This document shows, in pieces, positions 28,094 to 42,015 of a DNA stretch of 64,000 nt. A program made the position numbers and the translations under genes. This stretch comes from Gammaproteobacteria bacterium (GTDB lineage Bacteria; Pseudomonadota; Gammaproteobacteria; SZUA-152). Location of the stretch: assembly GCA_021647705.1 (NCBI GenBank), contig JAKIUF010000011.1:1-64000 (forward strand), given 5' to 3'. Within the stretch, counting starts at the first letter, position 1; every line of letters begins with the position of its first letter. Under the pieces are notes generated by a model. The model did no database searches. It was not told the origin of the DNA and was given only the letters and a program-made list of their open reading frames with translations.

Positions 28094-29551
28094 TTAATCT
28101 ATCCCATCAAGCGGGACATTCAATGCATTTGCGACACCTTGACCATAGGCCGGGTCAGCTTTCAGGCAATTACTGATGTGACGTTTTTGCACATCAATAG
28201 AGGCTCCGCCCACTGAACGGGCGGTATTTTCAAATAACACCTGTTGTTGTTCCGAGGTCATCAGGCGAAACAAATCGCCAGGCTGGGTGTAGTAGTCGTC
28301 ATCGTCTTCACGATGATCCCAGTGGTCTGCTGTGGCACCGACTGCCAGCGGGGGCTCTTTGCTTTCTGGTTGCTCTTGCCATTCACCCAGGCTGTTTGGC
28401 TCATAACCTTTGGTGCTGCCAAAGTTGCCATCGACACGCATCGCTCCATCACGATGAAAACTGTGTACCGGGCAACGTGCTGTGTTGACCGGAATCTGCG
28501 CATGATTAACGCCCAGGCGGTAACGCTGTGTATCACCATAAGAAAAAAGGCGTCCTTGCAGCATTTTGTCCGGTGAAAAACCAATGCCCGGTACGACATT
28601 GGCAGGATTAAACGCGGATTGCTCCACTTCAGCATGGTAATTTTCAGGGTTACGATTGAGTTCCAGCACACCGACATCAATCAGTGGATAGTCTTTGTGT
28701 GACCATACTTTAGTTAAATCGAAAGGGTGAAAGCGGTAAGATTCGGCATCCTTTTCTGGCATGACCTGCACTTTGAAATCCCAGCGTGGGAAATCACCCT
28801 TTTCAATGCTTTCGTACAAATCCTTTTGGTGGCTTTCCCGCTCCTGACCAATCAGTTTTTCCGCTTCTGCATCGGTGAGATTCTCTATGGGTTGCTGACT
28901 CTTGAAGTGAAATTTGACCCAGAAACGCTCGTTATCCGCATTAATAAAACTGAAGGTATGGCTACCAAAACCATGCATATGGCGATAGGTGCGCGGATTA
29001 CCCCGGTCGCTCATCAGAATGGTGATTTGATGCAGTGCTTCGGGTAACAGTGTCCAGAAATCCCAATTGCTGTGGGCGCTGCGCATATTGGTGCGCGGGT
29101 CACGTTTTACTGCGTGATTCAGGTCGGGAAATTTTAGTGGGTCACGCAGGAAGAATACCGGTGTATTGTTTCCAACCATATCCCAGTTGCCTTCGTCAGT
29201 GTAAAACTTGATGGCAAAACCACGGATATCACGCTCCGCATCTGCTGCGCCACGCTCACCTGCAACGGTGGAAAAGCGTAGGAATACGTCGGTTTTTTTA
29301 CCCACTTCAGAAAAAATATTGGCCTTGCTGTACTGACTGATATCATGGGTTACTGTAAAGGTACCGTAAGCTCCTGATCCTTTGGCGTGCATGCGGCGCT
29401 CGGGAATGACTTCACGATTAAAATGTGCCAGTTTTTCCAGAAACCAGATGTCTTGTAACAACATCGGCCCGCGTGGGCCTGCACTCATCACATTTTGATT
29501 ATCACCTACCGGGGTGCCATTACTCTTGGTCAGCTTGGGTTTGTTACTCAT
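28094..29551 (-). CDS. katA: Cytoplasmic haem catalase
   Basis: Catalase converts hydrogen peroxide to water and oxygen. This 485-aa protein has no signal peptide and is of the small-subunit (clade 3-like) type. The distal His lies in [15 protein letters not shown], the distal Asn in [13 protein letters not shown], and the proximal Tyr in [26 protein letters not shown] precedes the ATG. A second, exported catalase follows at 30266-32119 and oxyR lies at 42 kb, so the region forms a peroxide-defence set. Confidence 0.96.
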
Positions 29552-29627
29552 CTCTCTCTCCTTGATGATTAAGACGGCTGGTTTGGAATGCTCTTTGGAA
29601 TAGACTCAGGAACATGTGCGTTCCTTA

Positions 29628-29653
29628 CTATCGTCAGGCTGTACATTTACTAT
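29628..29653 (-). promoter_or_regulatory. Possible OxyR half-sites upstream of katA
   Basis: On the minus strand two ATAG tetranucleotides are exactly 22 nt apart, the spacing of the first and third contacts in the OxyR consensus. The CTAT halves do not match, so the call is tentative. Confidence 0.3.
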
Positions 29654-29717
29654 AGTGGAAAAATAATGTGTTTTTTGTGCTGGAGAAAAATGAACCAATT
29701 GTCATTGATTCGGCATG

Positions 29718-30200
29718 TTATTTTAAATAATCGGGCACTTTCTCCCGGCCAAACATTTTGGCAAACCCCACAGCGGTCATACCGGCATTATTTTCATGAT
29801 CAGGATTGCATTCATAAGACATCAGTTTTTTTGCCAGCGAAAACTCGCCACGAAATATGGCTGCCATTAACACGGTGTTACCCCGCATGTCGGCGGCACA
29901 GGTGTTGGCCTTTTGCGAAACCAGATAATCGAAGGATTTTGTATGGCCATGGTACGTTGCCACCATCAAGGCTGTGTAACCTTTGTTATTCACAACATCC
30001 ACTGGAAAGCCTGCTTTTATAAATTCTTTTAATACCTCCACATTATTGCTTCTGGCGGCGGCAAAAAAATAGGCTTTTAACTCTTCTTCTGCGGATGAAA
30101 ATTCACCGGGTTGGCTAGCCCAGGTGTTACCAGCCCAAGTGTTACCAGCCCAGGTGCCACCAGAAATCAGTAATATTAAAAGTAATAATATCGTTTTCAT
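29718..30200 (-). CDS. ankB: Exported ankyrin-repeat protein, AnkB-like
   Basis: The 160-aa protein has a signal peptide and three or four ankyrin repeats (NNKGYTALMVATYHGHTKSF, MRGNTVLMAAIFRGEFSLA, NAGMTAVGFAKMFGR). In Pseudomonas aeruginosa the periplasmic ankyrin protein AnkB is encoded with katB and is needed for full KatB activity. Here it directly follows a katB-like gene (66-nt gap, same strand), so the same role is inferred. The end of the signal region carries three tandem G-[GN]-T-W-A units from a 15-bp DNA repeat. Confidence 0.85.
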   Translation of the reverse strand: MKTILLLLILLISGGTWAGNTWAGNTWASQPGEFSSAEEELKAYFFAAARSNNVEVLKEFIKAGFPVDVVNNKGYTALMVATYHGHTKSFDYLVSQKANTCAADMRGNTVLMAAIFRGEFSLAKKLMSYECNPDHENNAGMTAVGFAKMFGREKVPDYLK

Positions 30201-30265
30201 AACAATTTTCTCCTATCAAAAAATAATAATGCAGCGGCCTGTTACGGCCGCTGCATTTCCTTTAT

Positions 30266-32119
30266 TTATTTGGCGAGGCTTTTTACCTGTTCCAAATTTC
30301 CATTAACCGCTTTTGTCAGCCGTTCACCAAAGTCTGCATCTGCCTGATAGAAGTAACTCAGCATAATGTGTTTGGTTTCGTTGTCGCGTACTTTACCCAA
30401 GTCACCGGCCAGATTACTGATCAAGTTGGCGCGCTCTGATTCACTGAAGTTGCGATATAACACACCGGCTTGAGCAAAGGAGGGCTTTCCTGCATTCACC
30501 TTTTGTTGGACATTGCGGGTAACGACTTCTTCAGAGTTGCTAACACTACTGTATGACATATCAATCTGAGCAAAAGGTCGTTTGATAGGACGTTTCTTCT
30601 CCGTTGTCATTGAGTGAGCATTACCGTTTGTTGCCCTTTCAACAGGTTGAGCAAAAGGCCGTTTGATCGGACGTTCCATCACAATCCTCTCTTGGTAAGC
30701 ATTATCGCTAATTACTCTTTCAACAGGTTGCGCAAAAGGCCGTTTAATCGGACGTTTCATCATAACCGTCCTCTGATGGGCGTTACCGGTTACTGATTTT
30801 TCAGAGACCTGGGCAGAAGCCTGGTTTTCCACAATAACCTTTTGTTGAGTGTTACCACTCAATGCCATTTCAGAGTAACGTGCATGACTGTCTTCCACGC
30901 GCACATCAATACGGCTTGGTTGATAATTCACATCCGATTTTTGATGACCATAATTACCCGCACCATCCTGATTCCAGTTGTTGACAGCAACCTGCGGACG
31001 GTTGATTGGCAAATGCTGGTGGTTGGCACCCAGGCGATACAACTGCGTATCGGCATAGGAAAACACTCGACCTTGTAACAAGCGGTCTTCAGAAGGCTCG
31101 ATACCGGGCACGATATTCGCCGGAGAAAAAGCCGATTGTTCCGTTTCCTGGAAAAAATTATCCGGCATACGATTCAGGGTCATTGTGCCTACTTTGGTTT
31201 CTTCTACATCCAGCCACATTTTGGTGGCATCCAGCGGGTTGTAGTCAAAATTTGCAAGCTGTGACGGTTTCAGTACCTTGATGTACAAATCCCACTTGGG
31301 ATAATCACCTTTGGCAATAGCGGCATACATGTCATTCGTCGCATGACTAAAGTCTTTGGCCTGTACTTCCGCAGCCTCTTTGGCACTGAGGTTTTTTATC
31401 CCCTGCTGACTTTTCCAGTGAAATTTCACATAAGTGACATCACCTTCTGCATCCACCATTTTGTAAGAGTGAACTCCCCAGCCATCCATTTGCCGCAAAT
31501 TGGCGGGTGTGCCGTAGTCGGAATATACCCAGGTCAACATGTGAGTGGACTCTGGCACATGACTGAAAAAATCAAAAAAGCGATTGGGGTCCTGTTGATT
31601 AGTGACCGGTGATGGCTTCAATGAATGCACCATATCCGGGAATTTGATCGCATCGCGGATGAAAAATACCGGAAGGTTGTTGCCCACCAGATCCCAATTG
31701 CCTTCACTGGTGTAAAACTTGGTGGCAAAGCCACGCGGATCACGCAGGGTTTCCGGGGAGCCCTTGGAATGAATGACTGTTGAAAAGCGCACAAACACCG
31801 GTGTTTTTCCACCTTTTTTGAACACGGCTGCCCGAGTCAGGTCACTGATGTTACGTGTTGCGACAAATTCGCCATGCACCCCGGTACCACGGGCATGAAC
31901 CACTCGCTCTGGAATGCGTTCACGGGCAAAACGTTGCAGTTTCTGAATCAGATGAACGTCCTGTAACAAAACACCACCATTGGGGCCTGCGGTGAAAGAG
32001 TTTTGATTGTCGCCAACCGGCGCACCGTTGTCGCGGGTTAATGTTGTGGCATTCACTGCTGTTGCCGCGCTGATGGCCAATGCCAAAGCTGAGAGTGTTA
32101 TTTTCATCGGTGTTTTCAT
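30266..32119 (-). CDS. katB: Exported KatB-type catalase with a repeat-expanded linker
   Basis: From ATG 32119 the protein (617 aa) has a signal peptide (MKTPMKITLSALALAISAAT..NA) and a complete catalase core: distal His in ERVVHARGTGVHG, Asn in VGNNLPVFFIRD, proximal Tyr in RVFSYADTQLYRLG. After GAGNYGHQK the usual short linker is replaced by about 130 residues made of five imperfect 23-27-aa units. Three of these contain RPIKRPFAQ. The normal KatB C-terminus (FAQAGVLYRNFSESERANL to ADADFGERL) follows. The in-frame ATGs further upstream would add residues before the signal peptide. Confidence 0.93.
   Translation of the reverse strand: MKTPMKITLSALALAISAATAVNATTLTRDNGAPVGDNQNSFTAGPNGGVLLQDVHLIQKLQRFARERIPERVVHARGTGVHGEFVATRNISDLTRAAVFKKGGKTPVFVRFSTVIHSKGSPETLRDPRGFATKFYTSEGNWDLVGNNLPVFFIRDAIKFPDMVHSLKPSPVTNQQDPNRFFDFFSHVPESTHMLTWVYSDYGTPANLRQMDGWGVHSYKMVDAEGDVTYVKFHWKSQQGIKNLSAKEAAEVQAKDFSHATNDMYAAIAKGDYPKWDLYIKVLKPSQLANFDYNPLDATKMWLDVEETKVGTMTLNRMPDNFFQETEQSAFSPANIVPGIEPSEDRLLQGRVFSYADTQLYRLGANHQHLPINRPQVAVNNWNQDGAGNYGHQKSDVNYQPSRIDVRVEDSHARYSEMALSGNTQQKVIVENQASAQVSEKSVTGNAHQRTVMMKRPIKRPFAQPVERVISDNAYQERIVMERPIKRPFAQPVERATNGNAHSMTTEKKRPIKRPFAQIDMSYSSVSNSEEVVTRNVQQKVNAGKPSFAQAGVLYRNFSESERANLISNLAGDLGKVRDNETKHIMLSYFYQADADFGERLTKAVNGNLEQVKSLAK
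30470..30830 (-). repeat. Coding tandem repeat inside katB
   Basis: Equivalent positions of successive units (FAQ/SAQ codons) lie at 30475, 30571, 30652, 30733 and 30814, giving steps of 96, 81, 81 and 81 bp. All steps are multiples of three. The unit nearest the C-terminus is the native catalase segment (KPSFAQAGVLYR). Confidence 0.85.
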
Positions 32120-32622
32120 GGTCAATATCCTCATTGTGGATTCGTACAAAATTTATTCGCTTGATTTTTGTAGCGAGGGCGAAACACATTGATACGTGGT
32201 GTCATTTCTTGTGTTTGCTGTCTCGACGGAATGAGTATCGTCTTGACGGTCGTTCTAGTAAATCGAATTAAATTGATATTATTGTTCTGTTAAACAGAAT
32301 CATTGAATTGTTGAGAAAAGGTGGAAAATGAGGAAAAGGAAGTAAAATGGTGGCGCTACTTGCGATTACAGATCAACTGACTGATAGGGGGGAGTTAGAG
32401 CTGCGCCATCGCATCATTAATGTGGAATATTGCTTTCCTCGTGCCCACCGATGGAGTCGGCATTTCGACTTTCAAGCTAAGGTGTCAACATCCCGTACTT
32501 TGCAACAGGGTTTGAGCTTCTTACTTCACATCTCACAAAGAAAATACGACATTTAGGCGCTATCGTCATACAATAAGCCTGATACGAATGACATATCATG
32601 AATATACTGATCATAAAAAACT
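32120..32622. other. Divergent intergenic region between katB and ietA
   Basis: No gene of any length is convincing. It contains a perfect inverted repeat TTCTGT-TAA-ACAGAA at 32285-32299, which may be an operator for either direction. The promoters of katB and of the ietA cassette must lie here. Confidence 0.45.
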
Positions 32623-33603
32623 GTGGCTAGTTCTGAACAAATAAAAGCACTATTACTTTCGCATCTCGCAAAGGATGAGGAGCGCTTTTTGTCTGTTGCT
32701 TTACAAATGGCAGCACACGAGGCTCGCAGCGGACACGGCAAACTCGCCCAAGAGCTGAGAGAAATCGTCGATAAAGCCAAAAAACAAGGCAAATCCAGTC
32801 CACCTGTCCCAATATCCAAAGGATTAAAAGACTCGTCAGGATTGTTGTATGCGACAACCCCTCATTTTCGACTGACAGACTTAATCACTAAAAATGATGT
32901 CACAGACAAGCTTGTTCGTGTCATCCGCGAACAGCGTCATATCAGCAAATTAAAAAATCACGGCCTTTCACCCAGGCGCAAGCTGCTGCTTGTCGGTCCG
33001 CCTGGCACGGGGAAAACATTCACCGCATCGGTGTTGGCCAGTGAGCTGGGCTATCCGTTATTTCAGGTCAGGCTGGATGCTGTGATCACTAAATTCATGG
33101 GCGAATCATCGGCAAAACTTAGACAAGTCTTTGATGCCATTCGTGAGGTAAGAGGCATCTATTTTTTTGATGAATTTGATGCGCTTGGTTCTCAGCGGAC
33201 AACACCCAATGATGTTGGCGAAGCAAGACGGATACTGAATAGTTTCTTACAGATGATTGAACAAGATGATTCCAACAGCGTCATTATCTGCGCCACCAAC
33301 CACGCTGAAATTTTGGATTATGCTTTATTTCGGCGTTTTGATGATGTTATTCAATATCAACTACCCGAAAAGAGCGAGATTGTTATCTTACTCAAAAACA
33401 GACTTCAACCCTATGTCACAAAAAGATTTCCGTGGTCCAACCTTGCAACCAAAGCGATAGGACTCAGCAGCGCAGAAATCACGCTTGCTGCCGAAGATGC
33501 TATCAAAGAACTGCTTATTCACGAATACAAAACAATCAGCCCCAACATCATTGAACTTGCCATTAATGACCGTCGTGAAATGAGCTATCAAAAACACCGA
33601 TAA
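32623..33603 (+). CDS. ietA: AAA-family ATPase, IetA-type
   Basis: The 326-aa ATPase has an N-terminal helical segment (about 1-60), then an AAA domain with Walker A GPPGTGKT (125-132), pore-loop-like KFMGESSAKLR, Walker B IYFFDEFD (D183, E184), sensor-1 ICATN and sensor-2/arginine-finger region ALFRRFDD. The architecture matches FtsH/CDC48-like ATPases encoded next to subtilases. The IetA/IetS pair is known from Agrobacterium plasmids as a stability module and as an anti-phage system. It starts with GTG and ends 9 nt before the protease. It is named by pairing and domain content, not by alignment. Confidence 0.8.
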   Translation: MASSEQIKALLLSHLAKDEERFLSVALQMAAHEARSGHGKLAQELREIVDKAKKQGKSSPPVPISKGLKDSSGLLYATTPHFRLTDLITKNDVTDKLVRVIREQRHISKLKNHGLSPRRKLLLVGPPGTGKTFTASVLASELGYPLFQVRLDAVITKFMGESSAKLRQVFDAIREVRGIYFFDEFDALGSQRTTPNDVGEARRILNSFLQMIEQDDSNSVIICATNHAEILDYALFRRFDDVIQYQLPEKSEIVILLKNRLQPYVTKRFPWSNLATKAIGLSSAEITLAAEDAIKELLIHEYKTISPNIIELAINDRREMSYQKHR

Positions 33604-33612
33604 GGAGACAGG

Positions 33613-36114
33613 GTGACTGATCGAAAGGACGCGAAACCACATTTTTTTCTTGGCCGAACAGGCAAGCCTGAATTATACACCTACAGCGGTGGAGGTGGTG
33701 GTGAGAAACCTCTAATCCCAGAGAAAAATAGACAGCAGCACGGCTCAAGACTTCTTGGGCAACTTCAACAAATCCAAACTGATCAACAGGAACTCAAAAC
33801 TGAGGCATCAGACTACCCGTTGGAGTCTGTAATAGGCATACAGATAGAGTTCGAAAGCTTTCCTGATATAGCACTTGCTGTTGAAAGTCTCGCAAACGAG
33901 ACGCACAAAATTGAACTGTTAAATGTAACCCATCGTAACGATACAACCTTCGCGACTATTTTTGTGCCTGAAGGCAAACTGTCAGCTTTTGAGAAAAAGC
34001 TACGTGACTACCTTTCTGAGAAAAAGAACAAAAATGGCGGTGCGATTGATAATCGCCCGTTGATTGATGCCATACGGTCATTTAGAGTGGCCGCGCTAGA
34101 AGCCCTTTGGACAGATGACATCGATCAACTACCTGAAGATTCCGAACAAAGTTTTTGGTGGGAAGTATGGTTGCCAGTCCGAGGAAATAGGCAAGGTGTT
34201 CTCCATGACTTTACTTTGTTAGCAAGTGCTATAGAGATCGAGGTATCACCGCAATCACTGCATTTTCCAGAAAACTCCGTGCTACTCGCCAAAGGTAATC
34301 GCCGTCAGTTTTCACAAAGTGGTTTATTGCTAAATACCATTTCAGAGCTACGCAAAGCAAAAGAGACTGCTGCCTTTTTTGATGAAATACCAGCCAATCA
34401 GCAGCATGAATGGACAGATGAACTACTAAGCCGTGCTTCATTTTCAAAGGCCACGGATACAACGCCCTACGTATGTATTTTGGATACAGGTGTCAACAGA
34501 GGCCACCCATTGCTAAGCCCCATCATTGGCACTAAAGATCAGTTTTCTCTTGATGGTGCGTGGGCTGCTACAGATGATGATGGTCATGGAACGGGCAGCG
34601 CGGGTTTAGTTGCTTGGGGTGATTTAACCTCTGTGCTTGATAGCGATTCCATGATCGAAATAGATCATCGTTTAGAGTCTGTAAAAACACTACGCCATCA
34701 TGGGGACAACGAAGGAAAACACCTTGGCATCGTTACCGCCGATAGTATTTCCCTGCCTGAAATCGAAAACCCGTTTCGAACAAGAGTCTTCTCAATGGCA
34801 TTATCCGCAACGGATGCCAGAGACAGAGGCAGACCATCGGCCTGGTCTGCGGCAATAGATAGTTTATCGGTAGACTATCTGGGTGAAAATGAAAAATCCC
34901 GGATCATCGTGCTATCGGCAGGCAATGTCAGTGATAGCCTAAACGATATGACTGAATACCCTGACTACAACGTATTACAAGATGTGCATGATCCAGCTCA
35001 GGCATGGAACGCGATCACCGTTGGGGCATACACGGAAAAGGTAACGATCACTGAAGACGACTGCTCCAACTACACAGCACTTGCCCCTCTCGGAGGTCTA
35101 TCCCCCCATAGCACCACATCGACTACATGGGAGCCATCCACCCCGATCAAACCAGAGATTGTATTTGAAGGTGGAAATGTAGGTATCGACCAGCATAGCT
35201 GTGCATCCATTCCGAGCTTATGCCTGTTAACCACGCACAATGAGATTACCACAAGACTATTTTCCACTTTCCATGCAACAAGCGCGGCTACCGCGCTGGC
35301 CAGTCGGTTCGCGGCTGAAATATATGTTCAGTATCCGAAGCTCTGGCCAGAAACGGTTCGGGCGCTAATGGTTCATTCAGCACAATGGACTGATGCCATG
35401 TGTGAACAATTTTCACATGGAAACACACCACACCAACAAGCCCAACACCGTGTTCGCTGCGTAGGGTTTGGTGTACCCAATTTAGAACGCGCTCTTTGGA
35501 GCGCCAACAATTCACTCGCGCTGGTGATAGAAGATCAATTACAGCCCTTTGATAAAATCAAAGGCAAGCCAGTTGCCACGAGGGATATGCACCTGCATGA
35601 CCTGCCTTGGCCGAAGGAGTCACTCCTTGAGTTAGGCGAAACGAATGTTGAGATGACAGTCACTCTCTCTTATTTCATCGAACCCAACCCATCTAGCCGA
35701 GGCGTAAAGGGTAAATATAGCTACCCCAGCCACCATCTTAAGTTTGACGTAAAACGTGCCACTGAGTCTTTGGATGATTTCAGGAAACGTATTAACCGTC
35801 GGGTGTTAGATGCAGAAGGAGGAGAAAAACCAAGTAAAACCACCGACCCAAATTGGCTTCTTGGATCGCAATTTCGACATAAAGGCTCAATCCATAAAGA
35901 TGTATGGAGTGGTACCGCAGCAGATTTGGCAGAGCGCGGAAAAATTGCTATATACCCTGCCATTGGTTGGTGGAAAACAAGAACGAAGTTAGAGCGCTAT
36001 AACAAGTCGGCACGATATGCCTTGATCGTTTCCATTTCGGTACCCGACGTGAAAACAAATATCTATGACGAAGTCTTTAACCAACTGGAAATTGAACAAC
36101 TCATTGAAGTGTAG
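33613..36114 (+). CDS. ietS: Subtilisin-like serine protease, IetS-type
   Basis: The 833-aa cytosolic S8 peptidase has no signal peptide. An about 280-residue N-terminal region precedes the catalytic triad Asp291 (CILDTGVNRGHPLL), His325 (DDDGHGTGSAG) and Ser557 (HATSAATALASRF). A beta-rich C-terminal domain of about 220 residues follows. The start is GTG 33613 with AAGGAGA upstream. In IetAS the protease is the toxic effector and the ATPase is thought to control it. The arrangement fits: ATPase first, 9-nt gap, same strand. The primase-helicase begins 15 nt later. Confidence 0.83.
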   Translation: MTDRKDAKPHFFLGRTGKPELYTYSGGGGGEKPLIPEKNRQQHGSRLLGQLQQIQTDQQELKTEASDYPLESVIGIQIEFESFPDIALAVESLANETHKIELLNVTHRNDTTFATIFVPEGKLSAFEKKLRDYLSEKKNKNGGAIDNRPLIDAIRSFRVAALEALWTDDIDQLPEDSEQSFWWEVWLPVRGNRQGVLHDFTLLASAIEIEVSPQSLHFPENSVLLAKGNRRQFSQSGLLLNTISELRKAKETAAFFDEIPANQQHEWTDELLSRASFSKATDTTPYVCILDTGVNRGHPLLSPIIGTKDQFSLDGAWAATDDDGHGTGSAGLVAWGDLTSVLDSDSMIEIDHRLESVKTLRHHGDNEGKHLGIVTADSISLPEIENPFRTRVFSMALSATDARDRGRPSAWSAAIDSLSVDYLGENEKSRIIVLSAGNVSDSLNDMTEYPDYNVLQDVHDPAQAWNAITVGAYTEKVTITEDDCSNYTALAPLGGLSPHSTTSTTWEPSTPIKPEIVFEGGNVGIDQHSCASIPSLCLLTTHNEITTRLFSTFHATSAATALASRFAAEIYVQYPKLWPETVRALMVHSAQWTDAMCEQFSHGNTPHQQAQHRVRCVGFGVPNLERALWSANNSLALVIEDQLQPFDKIKGKPVATRDMHLHDLPWPKESLLELGETNVEMTVTLSYFIEPNPSSRGVKGKYSYPSHHLKFDVKRATESLDDFRKRINRRVLDAEGGEKPSKTTDPNWLLGSQFRHKGSIHKDVWSGTAADLAERGKIAIYPAIGWWKTRTKLERYNKSARYALIVSISVPDVKTNIYDEVFNQLEIEQLIEV

Positions 36115-36128
36115 CGCCAACCTTTCAG

Positions 36129-38483
36129 ATGACACATGAATTACATTTTCTCCGCGCCGAGAATGCCCGCCTGATTACACTGCTTGAATCACACGGTATT
36201 GAATGGCGCTTACCACAAACTCTACCCTTTGCACCTGATACCGAATCCTCTTCATTCACTACCAAAGAAAAAATAGCACTTTTTTGTCGCCTTTTTCGGG
36301 GTCGGGAAGATGTTTATCCTGTTCGCTGGGAAAGCAAGGCAGGTAAATCAGGCTATTCCCCAGCGTGTGCCAATGAATGGAAATCAGGTATCTGCGAAAA
36401 GCCGCGCATCAAGTGTGCTGATTGCTCCAATCGCTCACTAATCCCGCTGACCGACCAGACCCTTTTTGACCATCTTGCAGGAAATCATACTATTGGAGTT
36501 TACCCGCTATTAACAGATGACCGTTGTTATTTTCTCGCCGTTGATTTTGATAAAGCGGATTGGCGTGAGGATGCCTGTGCCTTTGTGCAATCATGCCAGG
36601 AGCTGGATGTGCCTGCTGCTCTGGAAATTTCCCGTTCCGGCAATGGTGCTCATATCTGGGTCTTTTTTTCCTCCTCTGTTTCTGCCAGTGATGCGCGGCG
36701 ACTGGGTACGGCGATCATCAGTTATACATGCCATCGTACCCGACAACTTGAGTTGGGTTCTTATGATCGTTTGTTTCCGAATCAGGATACGATGCCAAAG
36801 GGTGGTTTTGGTAATCTGATTGCGCTGCCGTTACAAAAACGGCCTCGTGAGCATGGGCGTAGCGTATTTGTCGATGACAAGCTACAGCCTTACCCCGATC
36901 AGTGGGCTTTTATTGCCTCGATACAATCCATGAGCCTTCCGGATCTGGAAGCAGTCATATTGCTTGCTACAGGCAACAAACATCCACTGGATGTAACGTT
37001 TATCAGTGATGAAGATCAGCAGGAACCCTGGAGACGACCAGCTTCGGCATCAAAAAAAATAATGGATTCTATACCGGAGTCGCTGACGATCACGTTGGCA
37101 AATCTCATCTATTTTGAAAAGGAACAGCTTCCACAATCCCTGGCCAATCGGCTGATTCGTTTGGCAGCATTCCAAAATCCGGAATTCTATAAGGCACAGG
37201 CCATGCGTTTTCCTGTTTGGGATAAACCCAGAATCATCGGGTGTGCGGAGAATTACCCCAGACATATTGCCTTGCCTCGTGGTTGTCTGGAGGCTGTTCA
37301 AAAGCTGTTGCATGAAAACAATATTCACTGTGAGTTGCAGGATAAGCGTTTTGTGGGTGACACTATTGATATCAATTTTGAAGGCACGCTTCGCGCAGAC
37401 CAGAAAAAAGCGGTTAACGCCATGCTCAAACATGATGTGGGTATCTTGTGCGCCCCGACGGCTTTCGGGAAAACGGTCACAGCGGCCTCGCTCATTGCTC
37501 GCAGAGGTGTCAATGCTTTGATTTTAGTGCATCGTACTGAACTATTGAAACAGTGGCAGGTGAGGTTACAGTCATTTCTTGACATAAAAAAAGGTGTCGT
37601 CGGCACAATGGGGGGAGGCTCAGTAAAGCCCACTGGTGTCATCGATATAGCCGTCATGCAAACACTGACACGCCGGAAAGAACTCCGTGACAAACTGGAA
37701 CATTATGGGCATGTCATTGTTGATGAGTGCCACCATCTCTCGGCATTTTCTTTTGAGGCGATTCTTAAACACACCAAAGCAAAATATGTGTTGGGCCTGA
37801 CAGCAACACCTGTGCGTCGTGATGGCCAGCAACCCATTATCTATATGCAGTGCGGCCCAATTCGTCACACGGCAACCACGCCAGAAAATGCTCCTAAAGA
37901 ACTGGAGGTAACGCCACACTATATTTCCTCGGATATCGATGTCGTTCCTGATGCTCGCATACAGGATATCTTTCGTCATTTATCAGAAAATACGCATCGA
38001 ACCACAGAAATTGTTACCCACATTGCGAACCTTTATGCGCAAGGGAGAAAAGTGCTTGTATTGACGGAGCGTACTGACCATCTGGCTGCCATTGGTGATG
38101 CGCTGGCCCCGCTTGTTCCGAGTTTTTATAGGTTGCACGGACGCATGTCAAAAAAACAGCGTTCTACGGTAATTGCTGAACTGGATGCCTTGCCTGATGA
38201 TGCTCCACGCATCCTGCTGGCAACGGGGAAACTGGTCGGGGAAGGTTTTGATCATCCTCCACTGGATACTCTGATACTTACCATGCCGATTTCCTGGAAA
38301 GGCACGCTACAGCAATATGCCGGGCGATTACATCGTCAACACAGTTCTAAAACAGATGTAAAAATTATCGATTTTGTTGATACCGGTCATTCGGCATTAT
38401 TGAAAATGTGGGATAAACGTCAGCGTGGTTATCGGGCAATGGGGTATTGTATTACCGTTGGCAATACCTTCAAATCCAGGTGA
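36129..38483 (+). CDS. TOTE-type archaeo-eukaryotic primase / SF2 helicase fusion
   Basis: The 784-aa protein has a short N-terminal coiled coil (LRAENARLITLLESHGI) and a primase-polymerase (AEP) domain with a zinc-binding Cys cluster (CANEWKSGICEKPRIKCADC) and catalytic D139-F-D141 in FLAVDFDK. SRSGNGAHIWVFF follows. Then comes a superfamily-2 helicase: Walker A APTAFGKT (K448), DECHH (532-536), GLTATPVRRDG, and motif VI QYAGRLHR. This matches the AEP-helicase of TOTE conflict systems, inferred to act on foreign nucleic acid. Its 15-nt distance from ietS suggests one operon. No nuclease domain is evident. Confidence 0.85.
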   Translation: MTHELHFLRAENARLITLLESHGIEWRLPQTLPFAPDTESSSFTTKEKIALFCRLFRGREDVYPVRWESKAGKSGYSPACANEWKSGICEKPRIKCADCSNRSLIPLTDQTLFDHLAGNHTIGVYPLLTDDRCYFLAVDFDKADWREDACAFVQSCQELDVPAALEISRSGNGAHIWVFFSSSVSASDARRLGTAIISYTCHRTRQLELGSYDRLFPNQDTMPKGGFGNLIALPLQKRPREHGRSVFVDDKLQPYPDQWAFIASIQSMSLPDLEAVILLATGNKHPLDVTFISDEDQQEPWRRPASASKKIMDSIPESLTITLANLIYFEKEQLPQSLANRLIRLAAFQNPEFYKAQAMRFPVWDKPRIIGCAENYPRHIALPRGCLEAVQKLLHENNIHCELQDKRFVGDTIDINFEGTLRADQKKAVNAMLKHDVGILCAPTAFGKTVTAASLIARRGVNALILVHRTELLKQWQVRLQSFLDIKKGVVGTMGGGSVKPTGVIDIAVMQTLTRRKELRDKLEHYGHVIVDECHHLSAFSFEAILKHTKAKYVLGLTATPVRRDGQQPIIYMQCGPIRHTATTPENAPKELEVTPHYISSDIDVVPDARIQDIFRHLSENTHRTTEIVTHIANLYAQGRKVLVLTERTDHLAAIGDALAPLVPSFYRLHGRMSKKQRSTVIAELDALPDDAPRILLATGKLVGEGFDHPPLDTLILTMPISWKGTLQQYAGRLHRQHSSKTDVKIIDFVDTGHSALLKMWDKRQRGYRAMGYCITVGNTFKSR

Positions 38484-38608
38484 TCAGCTCTTTGTTGGGT
38501 TTTGTGGCTTGGCGGATTGGAGTGATCTGAATATAGTTTTGGAGGTGGTTTATTGTTCTGGCATGCTGGGGTTCATAAAAAAACATTCACCCCAGCCTAC
38601 GCATCGCT

Positions 38609-39313
38609 TTAACGCCGTTGCGGTTCGCTCCACCAGTTAGGGGAGATTTCATAAATTTCAGTCTGCTTGCCGAGTCGTTTAACCAGGTTTAAAGCCGCCA
38701 TGCCGGGCTCACTTTTTACGACGATGGTTAAACCATCACCGGGCAAGCTGCGCTCTTTCAATAAGTTGTGCTGGGTCAGCCAGATATGAATGTTCTCCAC
38801 TGCCATATCTGATTGAAAGCGGATGATGACGTTGCCGGGCAGTGCCATGCGGGGTGAGTTGGGACGGGGGGAGCTGTGAAAGACTGGTGATACGTTGGGA
38901 CTCCGTTTTGCATTTGCAGCAGCACTGGCGCTGTCTGCAAGTGATTTGCTAACAATGTTCTCCACTTGCTGTGGCTCTGCTCGCCATATGGTGGTTATGC
39001 CGTGTGTTTTGACTTGTTGACTGTTGGCGTTGCGCAAGGCAGTGGTTGATTTGAGCTGTTCTGCGGCGTTGTTATTCGGTACATAAAATTCTGCATACTC
39101 TTCGGGATTGAGCCAACTGGTGATATCCCGTTTGCCATTGTTCCAGGTAATTGCTTTCCACGAATTTGACTGGGTTGTGTTCGTGATGCTTTTACTCACT
39201 GTTTCCCCTTTAGTGGGGGGATTGCTGTAGCCCAGAGTGGCAAAAATAGCGAGGGAGGCCACTGCTGTTATCACAATATAGCGTTTTGTTAATGCGGGTT
39301 TGTACTTATTCAT
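38609..39313 (-). CDS. Exported stand-alone subtilase-prodomain-like protein
   Basis: From ATG 39313 (GGAG about 9 nt before) the protein is 234 aa. It has a signal anchor (YIVITAVASLAIFATLGYS), a long polar low-complexity region, and a C-terminal domain from about residue 160. That domain, VIIRFQSDMAVENIHIWLTQ..LPGDGLTIVVKSE..YEISPNWW, has the rhythm of subtilase propeptides that end 'P-N'. It lies 27 nt after the stop of the secreted protease gene, which itself has no prodomain. I infer that it is the folding chaperone or inhibitor supplied in trans. No other domain is seen. Confidence 0.6.
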   Translation of the reverse strand: MNKYKPALTKRYIVITAVASLAIFATLGYSNPPTKGETVSKSITNTTQSNSWKAITWNNGKRDITSWLNPEEYAEFYVPNNNAAEQLKSTTALRNANSQQVKTHGITTIWRAEPQQVENIVSKSLADSASAAANAKRSPNVSPVFHSSPRPNSPRMALPGNVIIRFQSDMAVENIHIWLTQHNLLKERSLPGDGLTIVVKSEPGMAALNLVKRLGKQTEIYEISPNWWSEPQRR

Positions 39314-39340
39314 ATTTATAGGCTCCGGCAGCAATAGGTT

Positions 39341-41797
39341 TTAGTGGCCATAAAACTTAAGCCCCCAGGAGGTAAATGTGCCTGTGTCACTCGATGTTTT
39401 ATCGGAAACCTTGAGGGTCCAAGTGCCGGCGCTGTTCTCGCCTAAATGGCGGGCGCTGCCAAATACCCAGCTATTGTAGTTACTACTGCAAGGAGTAGGG
39501 TTGAGGCGGTGGAGGCAGCCATGTTTTTCGGCCAGAACGCTTGTTGTTCCAGAGGGGCTGGTGAGTTCCACTCTGAGGTCGCCGTGGTAGGTGTGATTGG
39601 CACTGAAGGTAATTTCGATAAATTCAATACTCATGCTGCTATCGATGACGATACTGTTGCTGACGCCCGTGAGATTGTTATCAGGAATACTGGTAGCAAC
39701 AGAGCGTACGCCGCTGTTAAAAGTGCGTTCAGGGCCGATATTGCTCCAGGTTCGGCTGGTTGTAACAGCGGTAGCGGCGTCAACCACACCAAACCCGTAT
39801 TTATGGTTAAAGTTGTAGACTGGCGTGCCAGCGGTCACTTCCCAGTCGGTATCGGCCGGATCATTTTTGCGTGCTGTCTGCGCCAGTATCAGGCGTACAT
39901 CGCGCCAGCCTAGATTGGGGTTGGTTTGCAGCATTAGGGCAATAACCCCGGCTGCGAGGGGGGCAGATGACGAAGTGCCAATAAACGTTTTGGTGTAATT
40001 TTTGTCAGCGTAATCGTTAGGGCTGTTGTTGGTATTCAAGCCCTGATCTCCTCCTCCGCTGCGATCAGTGGTGGTAATGCTTTGCTCATTGTTTTCGAGG
40101 TTACCGCCTGAAGGGGCGCAGATCCACAGGTTGGCACCATTTTCTGAATAAACAGCTTGCTGACCTCTATCGTTAGTGGCACAGACAGCGATGACATAAC
40201 GATTATTAGCAAACGCATCATAATTTGAATTGTCGACGCCATTGGGGTTGCCGTACCGAAGGCTTGCACCATTGCCAGCAGCCCAGGTGTAGATGGTACC
40301 AAGACCACCACGACCATCAGTTGTGCCCGTTTGTAAGCTATTGAGCCAGCCGGCAGGCGGAGGAGGGCTTAGTTCGCCGGTATCATCCGTAGGTCCCCAA
40401 CTGTTATTGGAGATGGCGACATTGCTGATATTTCTGGTCATGGCATCAAGGGCATTGACCCCGGTAAGGTTACTGATCAGGTTAAACCCGGCTATGGAGG
40501 CTTGAGGAGCACTGCCTCGTACGCCCAGGCCGTTGAAGTCACGTGCGGCAATGACGCCTGCGACCAAGGTACCGTGGTAGTGATCGCTACACTGGGTGGG
40601 TGTATTTGCCAGATCATTGTCATTGTCACAGTAGTCGTAACTCTGACCAGCCAGGATATTGGTGGCCAAGTCTTCATGCTCTACTTCCAGGCCGTCATCA
40701 ACGACTCGGATATTAACGCCTGCGCCTTTGGTTTTGGTGCCAGTGGTGGCATTAATTACCGTGTTCCAAGCGGTTTCTACGTTGATATCTTCACCACTGA
40801 CACCACTATTTTGGCCACTGTTTTTAAGGTGCCATTGTTTATCATAAAGCGGGTCGGCGATGCTGGTGATGGTGGTGGTGTCGGCGGTACTGTCGATGAG
40901 GCCGTCGTTGACGATCAGTTCTAGTACATAGGCACCATCGACATCGGGGGTGAACGTGGGTTTGGCGATGACCATACTGCTCAGATTGATATTGCTGATA
41001 GCGGGTTTGCTAACAATGGACCAGCGGTAGGTAATGGGGGCGGGACTGTTGTCAGCATCATTGCTGCCGGAGCCATCGAGCTGCACCTGTTGCAGGGTGA
41101 TTGAGTTTTGATCAGGGCCAGCATTGGCAACCGGTTTCATATTGGGCGTGCTGGTAATGGTGACGGTGTCTGTTGCGTTGTTATCAGGTATGCCATCGTT
41201 GACGGTGAGTTTCAGTACATAAGTGCCATCGATGTCGGGAGTGAAGGTAGGGTTGACGATTGTGGCATCGCTGATATTGGCGGTACTGCCCGCAGGGCGG
41301 TTGTCGATGGCCCAGGCATAGGCGAGCGAATTGTTTTCAACATCACTGCTGCCGGAACCATTGAGCTGTACCTGCCGCAGGGTAATTACGTTCTGGTCTG
41401 AACCGGCATCAGCGACAGGGGGCGTATTCGTGCTGGTGACGGTGACGGTGTCTGCAATACTGTTGGTGATGCCGTCATTGACAATGAGTTGCAACGTATA
41501 AGTACCATTGCGCTCGGGAGTGAAAGTGGGGTTGACGATGGCCGCATCATTCAGCGTGGCGGTACTGTTTGTGGGGCCAGTGATGGTCCAGGCATAGGTG
41601 AGTGTCGCGTTTTCAACATCACTGCTGTCGGAGCCATCGAGCTGTACCGGTTGCAGGGTAGTTGCATTTTGATTAGGCCCGGCGTTGGCGACAGGGGCTA
41701 TATTGGCGCTATCTCCTTCTTCAATGTTTTCACCACAAGCACTTAGTAACAGAAATAAAGAGATAACAACACGTTGAGTCCATTTTGTTGACAACAC
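39341..41797 (-). CDS. Lipoprotein with three PKD domains, subtilase (kexin-like) and P domain
   Basis: The 818-aa protein has a signal peptide with lipobox LLSAC (Cys21). Three tandem PKD/Ig-like repeats of about 93 residues follow (35-123, 127-216, 221-311), each starting PVA(N/D)AG.DQN. The S8 peptidase has Asp367 (VVDDGLEVEHEDL), His408 (DHYHGT), Asn509 and Ser609 (GTSSSAP). The C-terminal P/homoB domain (about 690-818) includes HTYHGDLRVELTSPSGT and GTWTLKVSD. It is probably anchored in the outer membrane or surface-exposed and cleaves proteins. GTG start with AAAGGA upstream. Followed by the prodomain-like gene. Confidence 0.92.
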   Translation of the reverse strand: MLSTKWTQRVVISLFLLLSACGENIEEGDSANIAPVANAGPNQNATTLQPVQLDGSDSSDVENATLTYAWTITGPTNSTATLNDAAIVNPTFTPERNGTYTLQLIVNDGITNSIADTVTVTSTNTPPVADAGSDQNVITLRQVQLNGSGSSDVENNSLAYAWAIDNRPAGSTANISDATIVNPTFTPDIDGTYVLKLTVNDGIPDNNATDTVTITSTPNMKPVANAGPDQNSITLQQVQLDGSGSNDADNSPAPITYRWSIVSKPAISNINLSSMVIAKPTFTPDVDGAYVLELIVNDGLIDSTADTTTITSIADPLYDKQWHLKNSGQNSGVSGEDINVETAWNTVINATTGTKTKGAGVNIRVVDDGLEVEHEDLATNILAGQSYDYCDNDNDLANTPTQCSDHYHGTLVAGVIAARDFNGLGVRGSAPQASIAGFNLISNLTGVNALDAMTRNISNVAISNNSWGPTDDTGELSPPPPAGWLNSLQTGTTDGRGGLGTIYTWAAGNGASLRYGNPNGVDNSNYDAFANNRYVIAVCATNDRGQQAVYSENGANLWICAPSGGNLENNEQSITTTDRSGGGDQGLNTNNSPNDYADKNYTKTFIGTSSSAPLAAGVIALMLQTNPNLGWRDVRLILAQTARKNDPADTDWEVTAGTPVYNFNHKYGFGVVDAATAVTTSRTWSNIGPERTFNSGVRSVATSIPDNNLTGVSNSIVIDSSMSIEFIEITFSANHTYHGDLRVELTSPSGTTSVLAEKHGCLHRLNPTPCSSNYNSWVFGSARHLGENSAGTWTLKVSDKTSSDTGTFTSWGLKFYGH

Positions 41798-42015
41798 GAT
41801 ATCCTTTTCTAACAGTCCATTGTTTTGTATTTTTGTAATGACTTGATTTGGGAGGCGGTCCAGTCCCTCTTCATTACGGAATACATTATCAGAATGCGTT
41901 ATAAGGTATCTGTCAGCACTAACCCCGTCAAGCGGCTTTTTACTGAGATATCACGATTAATTTATGCGGGAATCCGAATTTGGTGAGCTCGCGGTCTGTG
42001 AAGATTAGCTGTGTT

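What the first reader, a model, noticed from the sequence alone, without database searches (positions are those of the whole stretch)
32623..38483. Three-gene cassette: IetAS plus primase-helicase as one candidate conflict system
The AEP-SF2 helicase starts 15 nt after ietS with no terminator or promoter between them, so the three genes look like one operon. IetAS is described as a two-gene system, and TOTE-type primase-helicases as parts of other conflict systems. Their joining would be a composite: a nucleic-acid sensor/processor placed with an ATPase-gated protease.
Basis: inference. Interest (0 to 1): 0.85.

Follow-up and report, generated by a model that had tools for sequence, protein, structure and literature searches.

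The report
IetAS defence operon with add-on helicase
A bacterial two-gene protease defence system here carries a third gene, a combined primase and DNA helicase of a kind also found at the tail of other defence and toxin operons, and the three sit together as one acquired cassette, although close copies elsewhere have let the helicase decay and one of them has kept the protease pair.

Summary
In detail: ietA (32623-33603), ietS (33613-36114) and an AEP-SF2 primase-helicase (36129-38483) are intact, co-directional, 9 and 14 nt apart. They behave as one block: three same-genus relatives lack all three genes; host homology stops at 32341 (two relatives) or 32299, and in one relative resumes at 38493, ten bases past the helicase stop. 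A left edge at 32536 with a promoter-like motif is shared with two other lineages. The composite-machine reading is only partly supported. Among 76 non-redundant IetS and 66 AEP-helicase groups fetched, the two adjoin only in this lineage. In both other members the helicase is dead; in one (G307) ietAS stays intact under purifying selection. Relatives of the helicase sit, more often last than first, behind AbiEii, HipA, ParE, McrC, RhuM, Fic, AlbA_2 and an unnamed ~185-aa protein. Best reading: a mobile IetAS operon with a promiscuous bolt-on helicase, expressed with it but not needed by it. The families are known; the joining, the cassette edges and the tail-gene habit were not found described in the few searches made. 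No function was tested. It fails the TOTE test: no TPR, OB or TBP match among ten flanking proteins.

The parts
32536..32622 (+). Shared left edge of the cassette, with promoter-like ACGACA-17-TACAAT (32546-32574); the 14-mer TATCGTCATACAAT is identical in the window, G307 and SZUA-140 (L010)
   Evidence: Local homology to L068 and L010 begins at 32536 in both; motif
32623..33603 (+). ietA: AAA+ ATPase; Walker A GPPGTGKT from residue 125, Walker B FFDEFDA from 181, RRFD from 237
33613..36114 (+). ietS: S8 subtilase; D291, H325 and S557 invariant in the 27 aligned sequences
   Evidence: model pLDDT 83.8; subtilase matches
36129..38483 (+). AEP primase fused to an SF2 (XPB/UvsW-like) helicase, 784 aa; D139, D141, H175, K448, D532, E533, R733, R736 invariant in the 15 aligned sequences
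32342..38492 (.). Segment without counterpart at this site in relatives; 32342-32535 also lacks a match in the two other cassette copies compared (L068, L010)

Best explanation
The cassette is a mobile IetAS anti-phage operon with a bolt-on third gene. Shown by sequence: the three genes are present or absent as one block at a variable spot between a catalase and a subtilase cluster, with one conserved promoter-like region in front. Inferred: one mRNA is made; IetA (AAA+) gates or feeds the IetS protease when phage replication is sensed; the helicase, an XPB/UvsW-like DNA motor fused to a primase-polymerase, acts on invader or replication-intermediate DNA as a separate second layer. It gains expression by sitting at the 3' end of an established defence operon, as relatives do behind other conflict genes, and it can be lost without loss of IetAS.
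For: Site without the cassette in three of seven same-genus regions fetched (G763, G764, G197). Shared left edge at 32536 in G307 and L010. Helicase a stop-ridden remnant in G307 and cut short in L010. IetA/IetS against G307: dN 0.019/0.051, dS 0.39/0.47, no internal stops. Of 44 loci with an intact helicase ORF (50 tried), 31 of 42 with room have a close co-directional ORF upstream and 12 of 41 one downstream (p 7e-5); control ORFs in the same loci 83 of 154 and 85 of 161. Upstream partners by Pfam: AbiEii (2), HipA (2), McrC, RhuM (2), Fic, NYN-OST, GNAT, SLFN_AlbA_2, ParE, YgjP, RNA ligase, SNF2.
Against: No expression, defence or interaction data. Only G307 is a clean case of helicase loss with ietAS kept: in L010 ietA has an in-frame stop at codon 43. 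The site in G763 is not scarless: 382 bases of its own, unlike the window, stand there, so replacement rather than simple insertion is possible. The upstream excess over control ORFs is modest (p 0.02; the downstream lack p 0.008). Neighbours come from a simple ORF rule; loci were picked by similarity and some are related, so the p-values are optimistic.
Confidence: 0.57

Rival explanations
1. A true three-component machine: the primase-helicase senses or processes phage DNA and hands a signal to IetA, which unleashes IetS.
For: Tight spacing and a shared junction in three lineages. One other IetAS locus (G358) carries a different, SF1 UvrD-like helicase 3 nt after ietS, as if a helicase slot can be refilled. 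An introduction sentence in PMC10732053 says that phage core replication proteins such as primase and helicase activate ietAS among other systems (passage).
Against: Of 76 non-redundant IetS groups held, none outside this lineage has the AEP helicase in the DNA held around it; G307 keeps ietAS with a dead helicase.
Confidence: 0.15
2. A passenger: the helicase is a mobile-element or selfish gene that landed behind ietS and has no defence role there.
For: Relatives lie between a recombinase and a Tn3-family transposase (E. albertii) and beside AlpA, YfjI and inovirus-type Gp2 genes in two E. coli plasmids; broken copies are frequent.
Against: Catalytic residues are intact here; a place just behind conflict-type genes repeats across operon types.
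Confidence: 0.22
3. Chance neighbours: two independent arrivals at the same spot, no shared history.
For: The trio is rare: one of 24 genomes of the family.
Against: Same 14-base junction, same start codon and same left edge in three lineages.
Confidence: 0.03

Closest known systems
IetAS anti-phage system (PADLOC IetA/IetS; NCBIfam IteA/IteS)
   Same: AAA+ ATPase followed at once by an S8 protease; PADLOC models matched
   Different: A third gene follows in the same block; scores are far below the NCBIfam equivalog cut-offs (188.7 of 510 and 82.3 of 900 bits), so a divergent branch
TOTE conflict systems (TPR, OB, TBP, Effector; expansion taken from PMC12458937, passages)
   Same: Shares the AEP-TOTE primase domain PF22548
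   Different: No TPR, OB or TBP match among ten flanking proteins
Primase-polymerase 7nqd/7nqf (PDB name: TPR_REGION domain protein; identified from memory as the CRISPR-associated prim-pol) and XPB, RadD, T4 UvsW helicases
   Same: AEP part matches 7nqd/7nqf by sequence; helicase core matches XPB and RadD by sequence and XPB, TFIIH-XPB and UvsW by fold
   Different: Primase and SF2 helicase are fused here; identities are low (13-21% in the 50 fold matches listed) and the context differs

Membership tests
IetAS | AAA+ IetA with Walker A and B | tested here: met
IetAS | S8 protease IetS with catalytic triad directly after ietA | tested here: met
IetAS | NCBIfam equivalog cut-offs | tested here: not met
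   188.7 and 82.3 bits against 510 and 900
IetAS | Two-gene system without a third gene | tested here: not met
   a third gene is present and absent with the pair
IetAS | Protects against phage | not testable with these tools
   needs plaque assays
TOTE conflict system | AEP-TOTE domain | tested here: met
TOTE conflict system | TPR, OB and TBP partner genes | tested here: not met
   ten flanking proteins, one of them without any Pfam match
CRISPR-associated primase-polymerase | CRISPR-cas neighbourhood | not tested
   ten flanking proteins named, none Cas; no search for CRISPR arrays was run

The most novel reading that the evidence does not exclude
This AEP-SF2 helicase family is a general plug-in of bacterial conflict systems: a mobile tail gene that repeatedly docks at the 3' end of toxin-antitoxin, restriction and protease defence operons, borrows their promoter and adds a DNA-processing layer to whatever sensor stands in front. 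The IetAS trio is one instance of that docking.
Probability: 0.35. Interest if true: 0.75.

Novelty: new variant of a known kind. Interest (0 to 1): 0.5.

Why it matters
If the helicase is a docking module, catalogues that score defence operons by their core genes miss a shared accessory, and its effect can be tested by adding or removing the same gene behind many unrelated systems. The G307 copy is a natural helicase loss with ietAS kept, so the question whether IetAS needs the third gene is directly testable.

Tried and rejected
TOTE membership: rejected. A fixed, recurrent trio: rejected. Rules and limits of the counts: one search took IetS matches at E below 1e-20 and 30% identity or more, and helicase matches of at least 40 residues above 38% identity starting before residue 250, then merged loci sharing an identical 80-mer; window and G307 merged into one IetS group. 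Some loci hold short flanks or end at contig edges and could hide a neighbour. In the large genome searches at most two candidates per genome were scored, and the lists are cut. Exclusive partnership of the ~185-aa protein with the helicase: dropped; 10 of 321 genomes have a relative of it and only G136 and G122 have it beside the helicase, the window's genome has none. A short terminal inverted repeat at the cassette ends, seen by eye, was dropped because the right copy lies where host-like sequence seems to begin. The genome-contig scan with one protein gave two loci. Of seven same-genus regions found through the neighbouring LysR gene, four (G762, G760, G758, G757) did not span the site or lacked homology there. 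Six of 50 helicase loci had no intact ORF by my rule and were left out of the neighbour count; the window was not in it. Upstream ORFs of L004 and L085 are overlong and L131's is doubtful. L077 and L078 (HipA, AbiEii) have broken helicases: named as partners, not counted in the 44. Papers: passages only of PMC12458937, PMC5862659, PMC10732053, PMC10924106; everything else only as listings with the start of the abstract. That I found no description of the trio rests in one open-licence library, which lacks most subscription papers.

Full report
What is there. The three genes exist as described, on the + strand, 9 and 14 nt apart. IetA is a AAA+ ATPase and IetS an S8 protease by PADLOC and Pfam; the third protein has an AEP-TOTE primase domain, four invariant cysteines at 80-99 (a zinc site by inference) and an SF2 helicase. 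Catalytic residues are invariant in the alignments made here: IetS D291, H325, S557 in 27 sequences; helicase protein D139, D141, H175, K448, D532 and E533 in 15. The model of the primase-helicase is of middling confidence (8 sequences, pLDDT 74.1, pTM 0.43); its top fold matches are XPB, TFIIH-XPB and T4 UvsW. The IetS model (pLDDT 83.8, pTM 0.75) matches subtilases. Both IetA and IetS score far below the NCBIfam equivalog cut-offs, so this is a divergent branch.

One block. The neighbouring LysR gene led to the same site in seven same-genus genomes. In G763, G764 and G197 the cassette is absent: homology to the window ends at 32341, 32341 and 32299. In G763 it resumes at 38493, ten bases after the helicase stop. 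It is not a scarless site: G763 has 382 bases of its own there. In G764 the subtilase cluster is missing too and homology resumes at 41998, so the spot is variable. The other four regions were uninformative. Of 24 family genomes 4 have an IetS match, one of them a fragment, and one (the window's) has the trio. The left edge of homology to G307 and to the SZUA-140 contig (L010) is window 32536 in both, 87 bases before the ietA start; it carries ACGAC(A/T)-N17/18-TACAAT, with a 14-mer identical in all three. The 14-base ietS-helicase gap and the ATG are also kept in all three. G307 belongs to another family than the window; the family of SZUA-140 was not determined.

The helicase is not kept with ietAS. 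In G307 IetA is 96% and IetS 91% identical, but the helicase is a remnant with stops and deletions; its best internal stretch is 77% identical over 88 bases. IetA and IetS show dN/dS of about 0.05 and 0.11 against G307; this is pooled over both branches. In L010 the helicase breaks off after about 42 codons, ietS is open, and ietA has a stop at codon 43. So there is one clean natural loss of the helicase with ietAS kept, and one case where ietA fell too.

Co-occurrence. In 369 class genomes I read 10 with IetS at E 1e-70 or better and 29 with a match covering part of the AEP; 5 have both, and they adjoin in the window genome and, as a remnant, in G307; in G162, G250 and G358 they lie apart. 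In 398 phylum genomes the numbers by the same reading are 17 and 16, both in two genomes, adjoining only in the window (the list is cut at weak matches). The samples share genomes. Pooling the loci held, 76 IetS groups and 66 AEP-helicase groups meet only in this lineage. Of 72,556 plasmid records none covers 80% of the cassette by distant blastn; 5,426 E. coli genomes give no megablast match.

Where the helicase usually lives. Relatives at 41-72% identity lie behind other genes. Pfam names for upstream partners: AbiEii in L078 and L080, HipA in L077 and L157, McrC in L158, RhuM in L124 and L164, Fic in L167, NYN-OST in L005, GNAT in L161, SLFN_AlbA_2 in L165, ParE in L126, YgjP in L125, RNA ligase in L086, SNF2 in L076. 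Others (AbiEii-like L081, L137; HigA-like L141, L160; AlbA_2-like L138, L140; ParE-like L079) are named by eye. Several loci have no close upstream partner at all (11 of 42). A ~185-aa protein without Pfam, PADLOC or PHROGs match (one or two members scanned) stands just upstream in L002, L003, L004, L083, L085, L128, L129, L130 and, frameshifted, L084: 9 of the 24 rows of the window's helicase clade, in both halves, one of which is weakly supported (88/84). It is the commonest partner seen and perhaps the old one, but it also occurs alone. In the neighbour count the helicase is mostly last in its run: upstream 31 of 42, downstream 12 of 41 (p 7e-5); control ORFs 83 of 154 and 85 of 161. In E. 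albertii it sits between a recombinase and a Tn3-family transposase. Broken copies are frequent; G752 has two decayed copies and one intact.

Where IetAS usually ends. Of 24 IetS loci from genomes, contigs and plasmids with room downstream, 5 have a co-directional ORF within 100 nt, two of them recognisable: a UvrD-like SF1 helicase 3 nt after ietS in G358 and a metallophosphatase-NACHT protein 42 nt after in G426; of 41 from the viral collection, 6 do, none examined further. So a third slot behind ietS can be filled by different genes, but usually is not.

Verdict. Known: IetAS, AEP-TOTE domain proteins, XPB-like helicases. From this work: the three-gene IetAS block with its edges and sites without it, the natural loss of the helicase, and the tail-gene tendency of the helicase family. 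The joint-machine idea is possible but not the best reading.

Noticed in passing
L003:7445-7987, L128:2225-2794 and relatives: A ~185-aa protein family with no Pfam, PADLOC or PHROGs match in the members scanned, just upstream of this helicase in nine loci, and elsewhere (L259, L261) followed by another small ORF (112 and 61 aa); function unknown.
   Followed up: partly
L071:5899-10473 (G358): ietS followed after 3 nt by a 690-aa UvrD-like SF1 helicase with a weak HigB-like match near its N-terminus: another helicase in the third slot.
   Followed up: partly
L144:1810-6119 (G426): ietS followed after 42 nt by a metallophosphatase-NACHT protein that runs off the contig.
   Followed up: partly
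L265:4379-10316 (Escherichia albertii plasmid): The AEP helicase lies between a recombinase and a Tn3-family transposase; in Pantoea (L006) it lies between a recombinase and a DUF4158 protein.
   Followed up: no
L158:319-10352: A viral-collection contig carries a four-gene run: 1253-aa protein, AAA_5 protein, McrC, then the AEP helicase overlapping by 4 nt.
   Followed up: partly
G752:C37 (L253) and G752:C32: Two decayed helicase copies in a genome of the window's family that also has an intact one; the C37 copy lies near guaA-like and xseA-like genes (named by eye).
   Followed up: no
window 28094-32149 and 38609-41797: Two catalases and an ankyrin protein on one side and a PKD/P-domain subtilase on the other; the subtilase cluster is absent at this site in G764, so the spot varies on its own account.
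   Followed up: partly
L228:8514-8933 (G197:C40): A lone fragment of an IetS C-terminus (45% identity) in a same-genus genome that lacks the cassette.
   Followed up: no
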